Part shown: positions 20,457 to 30,987 of the stretch, in pieces | Numbering within the stretch: the first letter of the stretch is position 1 | How the letters are laid out: each line of letters starts with the position of its first letter | NCBI GenBank assembly: GCA_016649905.1 | Contig: JAENWU010000014.1 | Location: 1 to 35,537, forward strand | DNA from: Thermoleophilia bacterium | GTDB taxonomy: Bacteria > Actinomycetota > Thermoleophilia > Solirubrobacterales > 70-9 | Direction of reading: 5' to 3' | DNA: 35,537 nucleotides | The notes under the pieces: model-generated | What the model was told of the DNA's origin: nothing | Seen by the model: the letters and a program-made list of their open reading frames with translations, nothing else | Databases searched by the model: none | Made by a program: the position numbers and the translations under genes

Positions 20457-20524
20457 CTCGAACCTCCTGTCGGGTGACCGCGTCGAACGAGTCGAACGTA
20501 GCGCGGCCAGGAACTGCCGGAGGC

Positions 20525-21313
20525 TCAGCGTTCGAACCAGGCCCGTCGTTCCTCCAAGGGCCGGGAGAGGTAATCGCGGAGCGCCGGCGCGGCTTCGGGT
20601 GATTGCTTCGCCCGGTAGGCACTGTCGAGCTCGAAGTCCAGCGCGACCGAGAGCGGCACGCCCTGGCTCTGGTAGACGATCTTCTTCGCCATCGCGACGG
20701 CGGTCCGCGGCAGAGTCGCCATCCGTTCGGCGATCTCCATCGCCGTCGCCAACGCGTCTGGCTCGAGCAGCTCGAGGAGGCCGACCTCGTACGCCTCCTC
20801 CGGCGTCAGCGCCCTGGCGCCGGCGCCGAGCAGCATCGCCTTTCCCGGGCCGATCATCCGCGCCATCCGGGTCAGGCCGGTGCCGCCGGGCACTATCCCG
20901 AGCCTGGTCTCGATCAGCCCGTAACGGTGGTCAGCCCGTTCGCCGACACGGATGTCGGCGGAGAGGGCGAACTCGAAGCCGACGCCCATCGCGTCGCCGT
21001 TGAGGGCGGCGACGATCGGCATCGGCGCCTTGTTCATGTTCTGGGTGAGCAGATGGATCCGGCGGCTGCGGACCGGCGACTCGACAGGCCCCTCCGGCTC
21101 GACCTGCTTGACGAGGATCCCGTCGACATCGAAGTGAGTGATGAACTTGCCCGGCCGGCCCCCGGCGAGGACGACGGCCGGGACCTGGCGCGCCGTCCAT
21201 TCGGCGACGAGCTTCTCGAGCTGGCCGATGTCCTCATCGGTGTAGTAGTTCATCGGCGGCCGGTCGAACCGCGCGACGATGACCCCGTCGTCTCCTTCGG
21301 TGACCTTCCACAT
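20525..21313 (-). CDS. Enoyl-CoA hydratase/isomerase family protein
   Basis: MWKVTEGDDGVIVARFDRPPMNYYT...PIVAALNGDAMGVGFEFALSADIRVGE...YGLIETRLGIVPGGTGLTRMARMIGPGKAM. Confidence 0.92.
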   Translation of the reverse strand: MWKVTEGDDGVIVARFDRPPMNYYTDEDIGQLEKLVAEWTARQVPAVVLAGGRPGKFITHFDVDGILVKQVEPEGPVESPVRSRRIHLLTQNMNKAPMPIVAALNGDAMGVGFEFALSADIRVGERADHRYGLIETRLGIVPGGTGLTRMARMIGPGKAMLLGAGARALTPEEAYEVGLLELLEPDALATAMEIAERMATLPRTAVAMAKKIVYQSQGVPLSVALDFELDSAYRAKQSPEAAPALRDYLSRPLEERRAWFER

Positions 21314-21416
21314 GGGGCAGGAGGATATTGCGCCGAACGAGCGGGCAATCAAGAGTCCGCTTGCGGATCTGCGCTGGAACGCAGCTCGAAGGAGCGGCGC
21401 TAGGCTTTGATCGGCC

Positions 21417-21584
21417 ATGCAGCGACGCGAGAAGGACACCCCCTCCCCCGCCGAAACCGCTGAGGCGGTGCGGGTTCGGCGGCTGCGCGAAGACGCACGC
21501 CGTCCGATCAGCGTGAACTTGGCCGAGGGCATCGCTCTCAGCCACAAGCTGATGCGGTTCACGGGAGCGGCACGCAGCAGTTGA
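21417..21584 (+). CDS. Small (55 aa) partner protein of the downstream nucleotidyltransferase, antitoxin-like
   Basis: MQRREKDTPSPAETAEAVRVRRLREDARRPISVNLAEGIALSHKLMRFTGAARSS*; its stop overlaps the next start (TTGA). Confidence 0.6.
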   Translation: MQRREKDTPSPAETAEAVRVRRLREDARRPISVNLAEGIALSHKLMRFTGAARSS

Positions 21585-22057
21585 GCGAACCGGCCTTCGA
21601 TGAGCTGCTTCGGCGCCTCGCAGAAGCAGAAGTCGAGCTCGTCGTCATCGGCGGGCTGGCGGTGAACGCCTGGGGTGTCGTGCGAGGGACCAAGGACGTC
21701 GACGTGGTGGTCGCTCCCGACCCCGACAACCTCAAGCGGGTGGCCGAGGTCGCGGTCGCCGCCGGTGGGCGCGTTCAGAAAGGCGAAGCCCTGCTCGGAA
21801 GCCAAATTTCGATTGCCTCGGCACTGGCGAGTGGTGAACAGGTTGCAATCGAGACCGACCTCGGTCGACTTGACGTAGTCCAGGGCCTTGACGGTGTTCC
21901 GAGCTACGCCGACCTGCGTCTGCGGGCAAGCGAGGCAGAGATCCTCGGCGTCACGGTCGCCGTTTGCTCGATCGACGACCTGAAGACGATGAAGAAAGCC
22001 GCGGGACGCACCCGTGACCTCGCCGACCTCGAGGACCTCGAAGCCGCGAGCAGCTGA
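21581..22057 (+). CDS. Nucleotidyltransferase-like protein (AbiEii/MNT-like fold)
   Basis: ELVVIGGLAVNAWGVVRGTKDVDVVVAPDPDNLKRVAEV...DLGRLDVVQGLDGVPSYADL...CSIDDLKTMKKAAGRTRDLADLEDL. Confidence 0.8.
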   Translation: MSEPAFDELLRRLAEAEVELVVIGGLAVNAWGVVRGTKDVDVVVAPDPDNLKRVAEVAVAAGGRVQKGEALLGSQISIASALASGEQVAIETDLGRLDVVQGLDGVPSYADLRLRASEAEILGVTVAVCSIDDLKTMKKAAGRTRDLADLEDLEAASS

Positions 22058-23514: not shown

Positions 23515-23532
23515 GGTACCAGGAGCGGTACC
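23515..23532. repeat. GGTACC-AGGAGC-GGTACC, site 1 of 3 (candidate recombination core site)
   Basis: Read directly: ttcGGTACCaggagcGGTACCgcg; same architecture as 27264 and 30824. Confidence 0.7.
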
Positions 23533-23554
23533 GCGAAGCAGAACCTCCCAATCC

Positions 23555-23977
23555 TCAGTGGCGTGAGGAGACCTGTGCGTCGGCGCTACTGATTTGCCAG
23601 CGGACTCCCGGCCCGAACTCGAGGACGACGCCGCCGGGAGTGTTCAGCTCCCAGTTCGGCGGATCATCGTCGGCTTCGCGGGCGGCTGGCTTCACGTCGA
23701 GCAGCGAGCCATCGGAGAGCTTGCAGCGCAACTCGCCGGTCTCCTCGTCGATGTCGGCGTCTTCGATCGCGCGCCCGACCAGCTTGGCGGGGTCCGACGG
23801 CGACCAATCGGCGTCCTGGGTTGCGAGCCGCCAGAGGCCGCCTTGCGAGTCGCGGATCTCGACGTGGAGAACATCGGGATAGGCGAGGCGCGCATCGACA
23901 ACCGTCCCTCGCATCGAGCGAAGGACGTTCATCGGGGAAGCATCTAGGGCTATGACACTGGCCATCGGCCTCTCCAT
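23555..23977 (-). CDS. Hypothetical protein
   Basis: 140-aa ORF MERPMASVIALDASPMNVLRSMRGTVVDARLAYPDVLHVEIRDSQGGLWRLATQDADWS...; overlaps the upstream 63-aa ORF by 28 nt. Confidence 0.65.
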   Translation of the reverse strand: MERPMASVIALDASPMNVLRSMRGTVVDARLAYPDVLHVEIRDSQGGLWRLATQDADWSPSDPAKLVGRAIEDADIDEETGELRCKLSDGSLLDVKPAAREADDDPPNWELNTPGGVVLEFGPGVRWQISSADAQVSSRH

Positions 23978-24141
23978 TGTCGCAGCCAGGCCACCAGTTC
24001 GCCATAGCTCATGTGCTCCCGCGCGCCGCCGGAGGCCTTCTCGGCGTGCAGCGCCTCGCTGGCTGCATAGCGCTCCCGGGCAGTCAGACCGGCCTCCTTG
24101 CAGGCCTGCCGAAACTGCTTGATGTCGCGCTTCCTGGTCAA
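23950..24141 (-). CDS. Small hypothetical protein (63 aa)
   Basis: MTRKRDIKQFRQACKEAGLTARERYAASEALHAEKASGGAREHMSYGELVAWLRQWRGRWPVS; ATGA overlap with the hicB-like stop. Confidence 0.6.
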   Translation of the reverse strand: MTRKRDIKQFRQACKEAGLTARERYAASEALHAEKASGGAREHMSYGELVAWLRQWRGRWPVS

Positions 24142-24353
24142 ACGGAACGCGAGCTTAAATCGATACCGCGCACCTCCCCCTCCTCCTCCAGCACCTCGAG
24201 GTATCCCTTGATGGCGTCCTCGGCCATCGTCAGAGCTTCATCGCGGGTCTCACCCTGGGTATGGCAGCCCGGCAGAGCCGGAACCGACACGCTGAAGCCG
24301 CCCTCTTCTCCGGGCTGCAGCACGACCTCGAACTCGTGGGATTTAGCCATCAT
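24138..24353 (-). CDS. HicB-like antitoxin (orphan)
   Basis: MMAKSHEFEVVLQPGEEGGFSVSVPALPGCHTQGETRDEALTMAEDAIKGYLEVLEEEGEVRGIDL; classic HicB motif. Start set at 24353; the longer ORF reaches 24455. Confidence 0.85.
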   Translation of the reverse strand: MMAKSHEFEVVLQPGEEGGFSVSVPALPGCHTQGETRDEALTMAEDAIKGYLEVLEEEGEVRGIDLSSRSV

Positions 24354-24489
24354 CAAATGCAGCCCGGCGAGCCCGACAGGACCGATCAACTCGACCGGTA
24401 CTTGACAGAGATCGTCAAGGACTGATTTCGCCCCTGCTCGCAGGCGCAGTTGCAATCGCAGCCGTCGTGATGGTCGCGGTAGTGGTTGG

Positions 24490-25050
24490 TTGGTTCATGT
24501 ACTGATCTCCTGCTGCGCCGGCGGGGGCTTCGGGACGCGCACGCACTGCGCGAACGAGGAAGAGACCGTCTTCGAGCAGATGCGGCCGATCATCGTCAAC
24601 GGCCTCGACGCCATCGCCACCCGCCAGGATCTCCTCGATCGATCGATCGTCCTGCGGCTGCCGACGATCTCACGGCGCTTCACTGAGAAGAACTGCGGGA
24701 TCGATTCGCCGCACTCGCGCCGCTGGTGCTTGGTGCTCTTGCCGATGCTGTTGCGGTCGGCCTCGCGCGCTTGCCGCATGTGGAGGTGCCCGACCTCCCA
24801 CGCATGGCGGACTTCGGGAGGTGGGTGACTGCGGCCGAGCCGAGCTTCGGCTGGGACGAGGGCACCATCCTCGCCGCGTTCGAGGAGAACCAGGCGTCAG
24901 CCCTTCGCACCAGCCTGGAGGGCAGCTTGCTGGCCACGGCGATCCAGAGGCTCCTCGCGGACAGCGGGGAGATCGGCGCGACCCCGACCGACCTCTACGA
25001 GTCGCTGTCCTTCAAGATCGCCGAGGATCAGAGGCGGGCAAGGGCCCCCC
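24490..25050 (+). pseudogene. Phage/plasmid-type ATPase (primase-helicase-like) C-terminal remnant with frameshift
   Basis: GFGTRTHCANEEETVFEQMRPIIVNGLDAIATRQDLLDRSIVLRLPTIS in frame 24490, then DRFAALAPLVLGALADAVAVGLARLPHVEVPDLPRMADFGRWVTAAEPSFGWDEGTILAAFEEN in a different frame; break near 24700. Confidence 0.7.
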
Positions 25051-25051
25051 G

Positions 25052-25306
25052 ATGTCCACGAGAACGGTGCGGACGATGACGACCGTGATCGAAGACGGGC
25101 TTCTCAAGCCCGCCGAGGTCTGCAAGCTCCTCGCCGTCTCGCGCACCTGGGTCTACGCGGCAGCTGCCGAGGGGCGCATTCCAGCGATCCGCCTCGGAGG
25201 CCCAGAAGGGCCGCTGCGATTCGTTCGTGCCGATGTCGAGCGGTGGCTGCAGGACGCACGCGCAGAGTGGACGCCTGGCCGGAGCCAATCCGGCCAAGCG
25301 GCCTGA
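25052..25306 (+). CDS. Excisionase/AlpA-like HTH protein
   Basis: MSTRTVRTMTTVIEDGLLKPAEVCKLLAVSRTWVYAAAAEGRIPAIRLGGPEGPLRFVRADVERWLQD, directly upstream of the integrase. Confidence 0.85.
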   Translation: MSTRTVRTMTTVIEDGLLKPAEVCKLLAVSRTWVYAAAAEGRIPAIRLGGPEGPLRFVRADVERWLQDARAEWTPGRSQSGQAA

Positions 25307-25328
25307 GGGCAGCGGAAACGCGGTAGGC

Positions 25329-26446
25329 ATGGCGCGCGGCACGATCATCAAGAGGCGCACGAAGACGAAGGGCACCGTCTTCGATATCAAGTACCGGACG
25401 GCAGACGGCACCCAGGTCAAGCACAGGCGGTCGGCCCGTCGAAGCAGGAGGCCCAGCGGGTACTCAACGAGGCCCTCGCCGCTGTCCAGCGAGGCGCGCA
25501 GCGCTCCACCAGCAACGAGACCTTTGCCGAGGTCGCGGATCGCTGGCTGGAGCGCAAGCGCCCTCGAATCGAGGCGGCGACCTACCGCGACTACGAGATC
25601 CACCTGCGGAAGCGCCTGAAGCCCGCGTTCGGCAGCCTGAAGCTGCGCCAGATCACGCGGGCGAAGATCGAGGCCTATCTCGCCCAACAAGATCAGGACG
25701 CGAAGCTCAGTCGCAAGACCATCAACGACAGCATGATCCCGCTGCGGCAGATTCTCGAAGCAGCGATGCGCGAAGGCATCCTCGGCAATAATCCGGCAAA
25801 GAACGACGACCGCGACCATCCGCTGGAGCTTCCCTACGAGCGCCCAACGATGCGCCACCTGAACCGGGAGGAAGCCATCCGCTACCTCGACGCCTGCGAG
25901 CCCTGGTATCGCCCGCTCGGTGAGATGCTGGTTGGGGCCGGGCTACGGATCGGTGAGGCGATCGCGCTGGAGTGGCGCGACATCGACTGGGATGGCAGCG
26001 CCGTGCAGATCTCTCGCGCAGCAAAGGACGGCGGCGAGATCGGCACGCCCAAGGGCGACCGCTCCCGGACGGTGCTCCTAGCGCCGTACCTTCTCAACCT
26101 TCTGCGTGATCACCGCGCAGATCAAGCCAGCGCCAACGGCATCACGAAGCTGGTCTTCCGGAGCCCGGAAGGTCTGATGCTGAATCGTCACAACGTCCGC
26201 CGACGCGGACATGACATCGCCCTTGAGGACGCCGGCCTCTCCCCTCTCGTCCGCCTCCACGACCTCCGACACACGGCCGCGACCCTCTGGCTCGCCGCTG
26301 AAGAGTCGATCTACTTCGTCCAGCAGCAACTGGGACACGCCGACATCCAGACGACGATCGATCAGTACGGGCACCCCGACAAGCAAGCCCACCGGGAAGC
26401 CGCCGCCAGAGCAGCTGCCTGGTGGCGAGACGCGGCTTCGGAGTAG
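25329..26446 (+). pseudogene. int: Tyrosine recombinase/integrase, single frameshift near 25427
   Basis: MARGTIIKRRTKTKGTVFDIKYRTADGTQVK(HR) in one frame, then AVGPSKQEAQRVLNEALAAVQRGAQRSTSNETFAEVADRWLERKRP...VGAGLRIGEAIALEWRDID...LHDLRHTAATLWLAAEESIYFVQQQLGHADIQTTIDQYGH in another. Catalytic R, HxxR, H/W-box and Y are all readable. Confidence 0.9.
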
Positions 26447-26544
26447 CTCTCTCCAGTCTGCCGTTCAAATGTCGTCTCCAAAGCCGCAGACCGTGCCAGC
26501 GAATTCGCAGGATTAATCGGCGGCTTGCCGACCACACTGTTTCC

Positions 26545-27132
26545 CTATTGGTATTCGCGTCTACTCGGCCAGGGCGGCAATGGACCACCTACTTCGCGTT
26601 CATTCGCTCGTCTGGCTTCAAATGGCGCCGGTCGCCGGATCACTCGTTCAACGGTGATCGGTGCCGGGCTGACCTCGGACGTGCAGTATTTGCAGCGGCT
26701 CGCCTGGCGGGGAATCGACGAAAGGCAAAACGGGCAGTCGCGGCGTGAGCGGCGCCGAAACTCAAGCGACAAGACGGCCGCCGCCGACCCGGTCACAAGC
26801 AGCGCAAAAAGCCCCAGAGCCTGCGGCAGGTTGAACGACGTGAGATTTCCCGAGGACAGTTCGTCTCCAGGGTTGAAGGCGAACGTGATGATGGAGGAGA
26901 GAATCCCAAATGCTAGGTAGATGGCGCCCATGCGCCTGTGAAACTTGGATATTGGCATCCCAGCGAACTTGTCTCGCCTGCTAAGCGCAAAGAAGAAAGC
27001 CGGGGCTCCCAAGAATATGACGAAGTTGCCGTAGACGCCGAGCACGACGAAGGTGGCCTTGGACGATGCCGCGACCGCGATGAAGAGAATGATCGCGGCG
27101 AGTCCGGCAAGAGTGCTAGTGATTTTCTGCAC
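26545..27132 (-). CDS. Multi-pass membrane protein with C-terminal zinc ribbon
   Basis: Four hydrophobic segments (e.g. LAGLAAIILFIAVAASS, FVVLGVYGNFVIFLGAPAFFFAL, GLFALLVTGSAAAVLSL) then CPFCLSSIPRQASRCKYC. Start approximate (GTG near 27132); the ORF extends to 27285. Confidence 0.7.
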   Translation of the reverse strand: MQKITSTLAGLAAIILFIAVAASSKATFVVLGVYGNFVIFLGAPAFFFALSRRDKFAGMPISKFHRRMGAIYLAFGILSSIITFAFNPGDELSSGNLTSFNLPQALGLFALLVTGSAAAVLSLEFRRRSRRDCPFCLSSIPRQASRCKYCTSEVSPAPITVERVIRRPAPFEARRANEREVGGPLPPWPSRREYQ

Positions 27133-27263
27133 GATGGCGATATGAAAGCAAACAAGGTGGCGGAACCCGTCGAGTTCACCGCGGCCGCTCAAGAGTTCGA
27201 CCGCGAGCGGCGACCGCCACGAGAATGCCAACGGGTGGCGAGAGGCCTTCGGGAGTAGCTCTC

Positions 27264-27281
27264 GGTACCAAGGCTGGTACC
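27264..27281. repeat. GGTACC-AAGGCT-GGTACC, site 2 of 3 (candidate recombination core site)
   Basis: Read directly: agctctcGGTACCaaggctGGTACCacaacgggctcg. Confidence 0.7.
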
Positions 27282-27454
27282 ACAACGGGCTCGGGAACCC
27301 GCCTCAAGGCACCCAACTCGGCTCCCCAGGCAGCCTCGAACCGCCTGACAACGAGCGCATGACCACTCGGCAACTGACCGGGTGCAACCTTCGAAGCCAG
27401 ATCGGTCACCAGCCGTAATTCGGGTCGTAAATGTAGACGAGGACGGCAGCGATC

Positions 27455-30400
27455 TCAGGCCGTACAGAAGACGCGGAAATCTGCCTTCGCGACCTGGCGG
27501 ACGTAAAGCTCCGTGGCAGCGAGAAGCTCAAGCTGGTCGTTCCCCGCCTTCGCCTTGGAGAGGCCCGGCTGCGCGATGGCGATCGTGAAGCGAGGACGGA
27601 GACGCTCGGAGGCATCCTGTAAGTCGTAGAGCGTGGTCAAGTTGCCCACCTCGAATCCGTCGCGGTTGTAGCGCTGCTGGCGGTTTCGCTCGCGGCGGAT
27701 GAGATTCTGAAAGGTCGCAGCGGGATGAACGCGGCGGATCGTCGAGCGCTCGGCCTGACCGCAGACCTCATAGAGATCCTTAACACGAGCGCCGGGGGTG
27801 TCCTTGCTTGAGAACTTACAGTGGACAAGCATGAAGTGGATCTCGTCGCCGCTCTTGCGGATGGCAACGATGTCGGCGATCTCGCCTGACGTATCGTCAT
27901 CTAGAATGACCTCCCAGTTCTCAAGCTCCTTGACGAAGCCGATCGCGCGGGCCTGGACGGAGTCGGGGTTCTTCGGCCGGCGCTGAGACTCTTTCCTGAT
28001 CTGGAGGTCCTCGCCCCATGCTGGAACGATTAGCTTCTCGCGGGGGTAGGGCTGGCGCTCCGCCTCCTGCTTCGGCTGTAGGAGGTAGCCGGGCTGGACG
28101 ATCACTGCGTCCTTCTCGAGAATTACAAGCGGGCCAGTGCTCGCGGAGGTGAGGTACTCACCCAGCGGCATCCACCCGTGGAGACCGCGACGGATCTCAA
28201 CCTCGTCTTGCTCTGGACTGTAGGTGAGCACTTTTCCAGTGATTTCGGCGGTGTATGGAGCCGACCAATCGTCGGTGACAACCTCGAAGCGAATCGGACC
28301 GCCCGCCGTGAAGTCGCTGATCCGCATGTCGGCGTCAACAGCCGGCACCTCCTCGGCACCCCGACGCAGGGTCAATGCATCGCTAGTAGAGGTGACGAAC
28401 TCAATAGGCCACTCGATGGCGAGAGGGACGAAATCGGGCAGGGCGTCAAGCCTCTGGGGTGAGATGAAAGCCTTGTGGACGCGCTCGGGGTCGATGCTGT
28501 CGTCCAAAAGTAGCGGGCCGATTCGGTCGCACCAATCGACCCACTGCTTCAGGGTCTGGGCCGCGCGGCTCTCCCACACCCTCCCCTTCTTCGATGCGCC
28601 ACGGCTAACGCGCTCGCCGTTCTCGAAGCCCGAGCCGAAGACATTCGTCTGTTCCTTGGTCGCGGCCTCGGCCTCAGCGAGGCCGGCGGCGACGTTGCCG
28701 CCAGCGAAGGAGGTGAAGCGGCGGTCCGCGTCGCGGACATCGAGCAGGCCGAGCATGCTGGGGATCACCCGCTCGACGGAAGCAAAGGCACGGTAGACAT
28801 CGTCGCCTCCTACAAGGTCAGCCTTTCCTCCAGTGACGGCGTCAGCGAGCTTGGTGAGGCGAGTACCGGTGTCGGAGACGTTGATATAGAGAAGGCCGTC
28901 CTCCTTGTTCCAGTAGACAACGAAGAGGACGTATGCGGTCTCGGTGACCTCGGCTAGATGGCCCCAACGGACGGCCTCCTCGGACTTGACGACGAACCAG
29001 GCGACGCGCGCCACGGGATTGACCGGCAGCGGCTGGGAGAGCAGCGTCTCAAGTGGGTATACGTCGAGGACCGCATTTGGATTCCAGTCGTCGCAGCTAG
29101 TGCGGTAGACGACGGTGCTCATCTTCGGCGCGAGGCTGCGGATCGTCACCTCGTCGGGCTGGGAGCCGAAGCCTTCCTCGAACTCACTTGCCTCCTCCTC
29201 CGCCTTCGAGCTGTCCTCGCTGAGGTCACTGATTAGCTTGTTCCAATCGGCGTCCTCGGCAAAAAGGGGTCGCAGGCCGTGGCCGGGCGCGAGGTCGGGA
29301 CGACCGACGAAGACTGATGCCTTACCAAGTTTCTTATCGCTAGCGACACGAGCAAAGCGGCCGATGAACTGCAGGGTCACGGCGAGGCTCTTGTGGGGAG
29401 TGTGCAAGGCGGCGATCTTTAGAGCCGGCAGATCGAAACCCTCACCGAGCATGTCGACGCAGACGATGATGCGCGTATCACGCGATTGGAGGGCGTCGAG
29501 TGCCTCCCGGCGTTCAGGAGCCTTAAGATCGCTGTGGATCGCACGCGGGCCGAGATCAGACGCGATCTCCTCGTAAATTTCAAGGATTTGAGCAGTGCGC
29601 TTGATCGTGCTGACACGGGCCATGAGGACATGGTCGAAGCCTTGTTGTCGGTCCTCTCGCAAGCGTGCAACCGCCGCCTCAGCGATGGCGCGATCTGGTT
29701 CGCGCAGGTTGATGACCGAGGTGTAGTCAATCTCGGCGAAGTAGCCTTCCTCCTGAGCCATCGAGAGCGGATATCGGTAGAGGCGCTTGCCCGCAATCGG
29801 CTTCCCGTCTTCGCGATAGGGCGTGGCGGTGAATTGGAGAATGGGCTTGCCTTCAAAGCGATCGCGGATGCCGCGCCACTTGGGCGCCTCGACGTGGTGG
29901 GCCTCATCGACAAAGAGGTGCGAGCAGCCTTTGACGATGGCGGCGCGTGCCTCCTCGGACCGCTTTGAGAGCAGCGCCTGCGGGGTGGTGACGATGACGT
30001 TACAGGCGTCAACGAACTGCCTGGCGTTATCAAGCGACTTAAAGCCGTGTCTGAGGCGGCCGACGACGGGACGATGCGCACGGGGGCTGACCACGCCGGC
30101 CTTCTGCAGGACTCCGAGGCGCTCGAACTTGTCGGCGATCTGGGTTCTGAGGGCGTCCGACGGGACGATGACAAGGACGCAATCGACGCGGCCAGCTACG
30201 AGGATGCCGATCATCGCCTCAGTCTTGCCCGTACCGGTCGGCATCACGACCGTCGCTGGGTCCTCCGCGCCGGTGGTCCAGTAGCCGAGGACGGAATGAA
30301 TAGCGCCGAGCTGCGGGGACCAGAGCCCGTCGCGGTCGGCGTCCGGGTCGGCCTCGAGATAGTTGAAGACGTCGGCGTAGGTGTCGCGGATCGTCTCTGG

Positions 30401-30672
30401 AGACCCGGGATCGTTGGAGGTCAGCCACGTGAGCTCGATATCGTCGAAAGTCGCCTCGTGGTCGGTGAGGCACTCGGCCGGTGCGCTGAGAGCGAGACGG
30501 TCCCGAGGCCGCGGCGATCCTTGGCGAGGATGACCTTTCTACCATCACTCAAAGTGGCGTAGTGGCGGTCAGAAAAACTGAATACGAGGTCTTGGGCGGG
30601 GACCTGAAGCTGGCGGATCGTGTTGCCGTCGATCCGCAGCTGCTTGGAGTAGAGATCAGGGATGACAGTCAT
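27455..30672 (-). pseudogene. Large SF2 DEAD/DEAH helicase with nuclease-like C-terminus; N-terminus separated by one frameshift near 30485
   Basis: VVMPTGTGKTEAMIGILVAGR (Walker A), HLFVDEAHHVEAPKWRGI (DEAH), QFTATPYREDGKP, IIVCVDMLGEGFDLPALKIAALHTPHKSLAVTLQFIGRFAR (motifs V/VI), C-terminal EIADIVAIRKSGDEIHFMLVHCKFSSKDTPGARVKDLYEVCGQAERS. N-terminal part MTVIPDLYSKQLRIDGNTIRQLQVPAQ...GLGTVSLSA lies in a second frame and rejoins at APAECLTDHEATFDDIELTWLTSNDPGSPETIRDTYADVFNYLEAD. Confidence 0.85.
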
Positions 30673-30823
30673 CGGCGCCTAGTCGTACGGCTTAGAAGGC
30701 TGGAGATTCGATGGATAGCCACCCTGCCCACGGATCTTGAGCCGATAACCAGTCGAAGGATTCCTCGCGCAGGATCATTCCTGTGCAAAGAATGACGGAG
30801 CGGCCGGACCCGAGATTCTCTTC

Positions 30824-30841
30824 GGTACCAAAGTCGGTACC
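30824..30841. repeat. GGTACC-AAAGTC-GGTACC, site 3 of 3 (candidate recombination core site)
   Basis: Read directly: ttcGGTACCaaagtcGGTACCaccgggctc. Confidence 0.7.
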
Positions 30842-30913
30842 ACCGGGCTCACGAGAGCAGCTACGGAACAACCTCTTGGACTAAAAGCCGCTTCCCAAGC
30901 CGGCTCTCGAATA

Positions 30914-30987
30914 TCGGGGAGACAGGATTTGAACCTGCGACCGCTCGGCCCCCAGCCGAGTGCGCTACCAGACTGCGCCACTCCCCG
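30914..30987 (-). tRNA. tRNA-Pro(GGG)
   Basis: Reverse strand CGGGGAGTGGCGCAGTCTGGTAGCGCACTCGGCTGGGGGCCGAGCGGTCGCAGGTTCAAATCCTGTCTCCCCGA; cloverleaf folds; anticodon GGG. Confidence 0.96.

What the first reader, a model, noticed from the sequence alone, without database searches (positions are those of the whole stretch)
23515..30841. Three GGTACC-N6-GGTACC sites with invariant spacing and variable spacers bound and subdivide the mobile island
Sequence: GGTACC-AGGAGC-GGTACC (23515), GGTACC-AAGGCT-GGTACC (27264) and GGTACC-AAAGTC-GGTACC (30824). Each has exactly 6 nt between two palindromic hexamers, and paired copies were not noticed elsewhere in the window (isolated GGTACC hexamers do occur). 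Sites 2 and 3 also share flanks (CGGTACCAA...GGTACCAC..CGGGCTC). Knowledge: tyrosine recombinase core sites consist of two inverted arm sequences around a 6-8 bp overlap (e.g. 6 bp in dif), and Tn916-type elements tolerate heterologous 6-bp coupling sequences. Inference: these are core sites for the integrase family at 25.3 kb, and the island is a tandem accretion of two segments, site1-site2 (HicB module, ATPase, xis/int, membrane protein) and site2-site3 (helicase-nuclease). In one frame the sites read GTK-x-GT, reminiscent from memory (unverified) of some actinobacterial integrase C-termini.
Basis: partly seen in the sequence, partly recalled or inferred. Interest (0 to 1): 0.78.

Follow-up and report, generated by a model that had tools for sequence, protein, structure and literature searches.

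The report
Integrase arm sites with recognition code
The three repeated GGTACC pairs are most likely the docking sites that a mobile element's integrase grips on either side of a proline-tRNA gene; related integrases in the same bacterial order each use their own version of this short DNA word, and the word changes together with a few amino acids of the integrase, which suggests a readable recognition code.

Summary
The three GGTACC-N6-GGTACC sites are real, far beyond chance, and the only ones in the 2.9 Mb genome. They are not crossover (core) sites. In relatives the same pairs lie at fixed distances on both sides of a tRNA-derived core: about 91-93 bp outside the 3' end of an intact tRNA, and about 98 bp inward of a displaced 3' tRNA half. 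This holds for many different tRNAs across order Solirubrobacterales and was absent from about 380 sampled genomes of the phylum outside it. That is the geometry of integrase arm-type sites. Among 70 integrases chosen only by their N-terminal domain, 49 have a four-copy repeat array just upstream, each with its own word (TGGTACCC, TGGTACTC, TGGTAGCC, TGTTACCC and others); 0 of 26 other integrases do. In all 4 non-GGTACC elements whose far end was reached, that end carries the same word. Word bases covary with four residues of a predicted three-stranded sheet, also on a tree. No binding data exist. In the window the sites mark a decayed tandem island at tRNA-Pro(GGG), about 21.34-30.91 kb.

The parts
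23515..23532 (+). Site 1: arm pair of the distal class (flank TCATTGGATGATGCG as in G001 and G006)
27264..27281 (+). Site 2: arm pair of the int-adjacent class
30824..30841 (+). Site 3: tRNA-proximal arm pair; extended word starts 91 bp before the tRNA 3' end
30914..30987 (-). tRNA-Pro(GGG), integration target; right end of the island
30939..30964 (-). Anticodon arm of tRNA-Pro: inferred recombination core (GACCGCTCGGCCCCCAGCCGAGTGCG on the + strand)
   Evidence: duplicated identity in relatives ends here
30887..30904 (.). Terminator-like hairpin between site 3 and the tRNA, conserved in relatives
25330..26446 (+). Tyrosine integrase gene; reading frame broken near 25424; N-terminal arm-binding domain encoded from about 25330 to 25430
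27234..27263 (+). Copy of the integrase 3' end directly before site 2
27361..27385 (.). Core-like palindrome after site 2, conserved in four genomes, role unknown
24821..25306 (+). ORF with HTH_17 domain, excisionase-like
27455..30672 (-). Restriction-type helicase gene in more than one frame, cargo of segment 2
21321..21340 (.). Left chromosomal junction of the island (in G004 followed directly by a tRNA-Pro half)

Best explanation
Each GGTACC-N6-GGTACC is a pair of arm-type (accessory) binding sites for the N-terminal domain of a tyrosine integrase. The element's attachment site reads: arm pair, about 70-100 bp, core (3' half of a tRNA gene), about 80-100 bp, arm pair or four-site array. Integration crosses over in the tRNA anticodon arm and restores the tRNA, leaving arm sites at each island end. 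In the window, elements integrated one after another at tRNA-Pro(GGG) and decayed; the three pairs are surviving arms. The arm word is read by four residues of a predicted three-stranded sheet at the integrase N-terminus. Shown by sequence: positions, spacing, tRNA duplication in relatives, word diversity, word-residue covariation. Inferred: binding, crossover point, role in the recombination complex.
For: Order-wide pattern half-tRNA + 85-115 bp + pair: 26 hits in 23 of 232 genomes, reversed control 0, gap 96-100 bp (105 and 107 for tRNA-Pro) across many tRNA types; none outside the order in a sample of 397 genomes of the phylum. Second pair 82-104 bp outside the matching intact tRNA in 7 elements and 91-92 bp in the window and three relatives. 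Of 70 integrases chosen only by N-terminal homology, 21 have a GGTACC pair upstream (next palindrome 2) and 49 have a four-copy array above all shuffles; 0 of 26 integrases chosen by catalytic homology do. Non-GGTACC elements repeat their own word at the far end, 4 of 4 reached. Covariation in 49 integrases: position 7 C with Arg 48/49, position 6 G with Met/Trp 48/49, position 5 A with Glu/Asp 46/49, position 3 G with Lys 45/49; independent pairs on a tree built without the N-terminus go the same way 6:0, 4:0, 2.9:0 and 4.5:0. The N-terminal model is beta-beta-beta-alpha with these residues in the strands.
Against: No binding or excision data. The window has no recognisable tRNA half at sites 1 or 2, and its int is frameshifted. 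21 of 70 N-terminus-selected integrases show no array above shuffles under the grammar used. Pfam and PDB sequence searches have no match for the N-terminal domain, and fold searches are not significant. Exact base prediction for departures from TGGTACCC in held-out rows is uneven: 10/12 at position 6, but 4/10, 5/18 and 1/16 at positions 5, 7 and 3.
Confidence: 0.93

Rival explanations
1. Core recombination sites: two inverted GGTACC arms around a 6-bp overlap, cut by the integrase.
For: Palindromic hexamers with exact spacing, confined to the island.
Against: The duplicated core is the tRNA. Spacers differ between the two ends of one element (6 and 7). Other members use non-palindromic direct repeats in four copies.
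Confidence: 0.03
2. Binding sites of an excisionase (RDF) rather than of the integrase; RDF sites are also direct repeats about one helical turn apart (PMC7498355).
For: Direct repeats about 12 bp apart beside att cores.
Against: The word is present at both ends of elements, and its bases covary with integrase N-terminal residues.
Confidence: 0.05
3. Operator of a repressor that controls int, because the array overlaps or lies just upstream of the int start in the larger family.
For: Array close to the int start. Autoregulation through arm binding is compatible with the main explanation.
Against: The same word stands near the tRNA many kb from int at a fixed distance, and in the window's family it lies after the int stop codon.
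Confidence: 0.03

Closest known systems
Lambda-type heterobivalent integrase and its arm-type sites (PMC4880445)
   Same: A small N-terminal domain binds accessory sites in the arms on both sides of the core, at a distance
   Different: Different words, direct-repeat arrays with about 12-17-11 bp spacing, tRNA anticodon-arm cores; host bending proteins and stoichiometry unknown here
Mycobacteriophage cluster K attP arm-type pairs (PMC3203893)
   Same: Pairs of 11-bp arm repeats flanking a core; the authors noted that arm base 7 differs together with Int residues 17 and 19 among four closely related phages
   Different: Here 49 divergent integrases, four base positions, a tree control, and a fixed array geometry
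IntTn916 subgroup arm-binding domain (PMC8138268)
   Same: Three beta strands and one helix at the N-terminus of a tyrosine recombinase
   Different: The N-terminus has no Pfam or PDB sequence match here; subgroup membership was not tested
tRNA-targeted genomic islands (Islander, PMC4383910)
   Same: Intact tRNA at one end and displaced tRNA fragment at the other
   Different: Several elements here keep arm pairs without a detectable integrase, and the window copy is a decayed tandem array

Membership tests
Tyrosine recombinase / phage integrase (PF00589) | Catalytic domain match above the curated cut-off | tested here: met
   83.3 bits against cut-off 27.1
tRNA-integrated genomic island | Intact tRNA at one end and displaced 3' tRNA fragment at the other | tested here: inconclusive
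   Met in relatives; in the window only the intact tRNA end is recognisable
Arm-type site system | Repeated short sites on both sides of the core at fixed distance | tested here: met
Arm-type site system | Sites bound by the integrase N-terminal domain | not testable with these tools
   Only covariation is available
Arm-binding domain | Three strands and one helix at the N-terminus | tested here: met
   Predicted E4-11, E15-23, E29-35, H38-55 at pLDDT about 80; no significant PDB fold match
Core site of dif/Xer or Tn916 type at GGTACC-N6-GGTACC | Inverted core arms around the overlap, duplicated at element ends as the crossover point | tested here: not met
   The duplicated core is the tRNA; the units are direct repeats
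T-box leader or other Rfam element | Rfam match at the sites | tested here: not met
   Only three tRNAs found in the window

The most novel reading that the evidence does not exclude
A compact recognition code for integrase arm-binding domains: four sheet residues specify four bases of an 8-bp word, and word plus fixed spacing forms an address by which an integrase recognises its own element ends, including integrase-less islands carrying the same word that could be mobilised in trans.
Probability: 0.55. Interest if true: 0.78.

Novelty: new variant of a known kind. Interest (0 to 1): 0.68.

Why it matters
In the papers I could search, how integrase arm-binding domains choose their sites is described for few proteins, with one small hint from four phages (PMC3203893). 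Here one lineage offers tens of natural integrase-word pairs with fixed geometry, so a residue-to-base code can be tested directly by mutation. The word plus spacing also marks both ends of elements, which would help to delimit islands and to find integrase-less passengers that may be mobilised in trans.

Tried and rejected
Core-site reading (rejected, see rivals). T-box riboswitch, because GGTACC occurs in T-box motifs: no Rfam hit. Coding origin in integrase C-termini: not supported. Search for tRNA-Pro halves in the window by k-mers and local alignment: nothing above background apart from the intact gene. Half-core at site 1: alignment to distal att sites not above shuffles, although the hairpin flank matches. 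Viral contigs with the compound pattern: 0. Genome-collection scan by DNA pattern: cap already used. Longer int structure: low confidence outside the N-terminus. PDB fold searches: nothing significant. PDB sequence search with the N-terminal profile: no integrase. Homology between the inserts separating int from its arm pair in the window and in G009: none. Exact base prediction from the code in held-out clades: good only at position 6.

Full report
Observation. The three sites are exactly where reported and none is expected by chance. They are the only three paired copies in the 2.9 Mb genome, with none for the reversed pattern. In a search of 61 genomes (own plus 60 relatives) 22 have pairs. 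The flanks fall into recurrent classes: hairpin CATCGGACGATGCG before the pair (like site 1), GCTGAG...CTCAG before the pair, or an integrase 3' end before the pair.

Where the pairs sit. The right flank of the island contains tRNA-Pro(GGG) at 30914-30987. A search of the genus with that flank found tRNA-Pro 3' halves duplicated beside the pairs in relatives. Three positions recur: about 91-92 bp outside the intact tRNA 3' end (window site 3, G007, G009, G011), about 90-100 bp inward of a displaced tRNA half (G001, G006, G026 and others), and 5 bp after the int stop codon (G011, G007). Site 2 in the window follows a 30-bp copy of the int 3' end (27234-27263), the homologous place. Identity between displaced and intact tRNA ends in the anticodon arm, so the core is the tRNA and the pairs flank it.

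The island. G004 joins the left chromosomal flank (window 20500-21336, 93% identical) directly to a tRNA-Pro half. The window island therefore spans about 21.34-30.91 kb. In G001 a nucleotidyltransferase-like module homologous to window 21425-22035 is followed by its own tRNA half, and G003 has several halves in tandem. Segment 2 cargo differs among genomes: a restriction-type helicase here, a GmrSD-like protein in G011. Tandem accretion is thus supported. The window copies look decayed: int is frameshifted, the helicase is in more than one frame, and tRNA halves are not recognisable.

Generality. The compound pattern half-tRNA plus 85-115 bp plus pair gave 26 hits in 23 of 232 genomes of the order, reversed control 0, and none outside the order in a sample of 397 genomes of the phylum. 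The allowed gap had 31 values, but the measured gaps fall at 96-100, or 105 and 107 for tRNA-Pro. In family f2 the integrase begins at or just after the pair in most loci, and where it was reached the intact matching tRNA lies about 6-16 kb away, with a second pair (spacer 7) before it. Extended units read TGGTACCC in one orientation, that is, direct repeats.

Arm words. Seventy loci were taken only by homology to 77 N-terminal residues of one f2 integrase. Twenty-one have a GGTACC pair within 400 bp upstream; the next palindrome scores 2. Loci without GGTACC show direct repeats of other words at the same spacing. A blind search for four copies with spacing 11-13, 15-19 and 10-12 or 21-22 bp found 49 of 70 above all 30 shuffles, 25 of them perfect 8-mers in four copies. 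Twenty-six integrases selected by catalytic homology gave 0. In 20 elements with non-GGTACC words the far end was reached in 4; each carries the same word twice (one copy with one mismatch in one case), spacing 13, 91-93 bp from the matching tRNA (His, Met, Arg, Lys).

Recognition code. Aligning word and N-terminus, the strongest mutual information links word position 6 to the Lys of QVKRR, position 5 to the Glu of YYEAKW and position 7 to the Arg of LVVR; position 3 with the Lys of EAKW is weaker but among the top pairs. Counts in 49 integrases: Arg-C 32, other residues with T, G or A; Lys-C 32, Met-G 4, Trp-G 4; Glu-A 35; Lys-G 32. On a tree built without the N-terminus, independent pairs go the same way 6:0 (position 7), 5.6:0 (Lys, position 6), 4:0 (Met/Trp, position 6), 2.9:0 (position 5) and 4.5:0 (position 3), never the other way. 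Single tests reach p of about 0.03 at best because numbers are small. Among weaker hits, seven significant arrays with aligned residues obeyed the binary rules Arg-C at position 7 and Lys-G at position 3, 7 of 7 each (my tally of the printed rows; these rows are included in the 49). The window-type integrase (L042, same contig as L057) was not in the training set; the window int shares about 27-31% with most f2 members over full alignments. It has Lys, Asp, Lys, Lys at the four positions and uses GGTACC, as expected. Exact base prediction for rows under 60% identical is good only at position 6. Words were framed with a template, which slightly favours TGGTACCC in the first set; the later set used only positions 2, 4 and 8.

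Structure. AlphaFold gives beta-beta-beta-alpha for the N-terminus at pLDDT about 80, with K8 in strand 1, D19 and K21 in strand 2, K31 in strand 3. Whether the side chains share one face was not measured. The order of elements agrees with the described arm-binding fold (PMC8138268). PDB fold matches are not significant.

Literature. Arm-type pairs flanking tRNA or tmRNA cores are known in mycobacteriophages, and a four-phage hint of residue-base correspondence exists (PMC3203893; see also PMC10865867). Seven searches of the held open-access library found no arm recognition code of this kind; subscription papers were not searchable.

Open points. The core-like palindrome at 27361-27385, conserved in four genomes without a tRNA T-arm, is unexplained. 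Integrase-less elements with arm pairs (G026 and others) suggest mobilisation in trans, untested.

Noticed in passing
window 27361-27385: Core-like palindrome resembling the tRNA-Pro anticodon arm but with a different 7-bp middle, conserved after the int-adjacent pair in four genomes; about one helical turn nearer to the pair than the tRNA core.
   Followed up: partly
L051 5640-8504 (G026): 2.7 kb island between tRNA-Pro and a displaced tRNA-Pro half with one arm pair and no detectable integrase; candidate passenger mobilised in trans.
   Followed up: partly
window 25330-26446 and 27455-30672: Both the integrase and the helicase genes have broken reading frames: decayed island or assembly errors.
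   Followed up: no
window 26447-27233: About 790 bp insert between int and its arm pair, leaving a 30-bp copy of the int 3' end; an unrelated insert of similar size sits at the same place in G009 (L037).
   Followed up: partly
L039 1201-18731 (G003): Intact tRNA-Pro and four displaced tRNA-Pro fragments in tandem: a record of repeated integrations at one tRNA.
   Followed up: no
L042 5209-7026 (G011): GmrSD-like / PDC-M55 family defence protein as cargo between the int-adjacent arm pair and tRNA-Pro.
   Followed up: no
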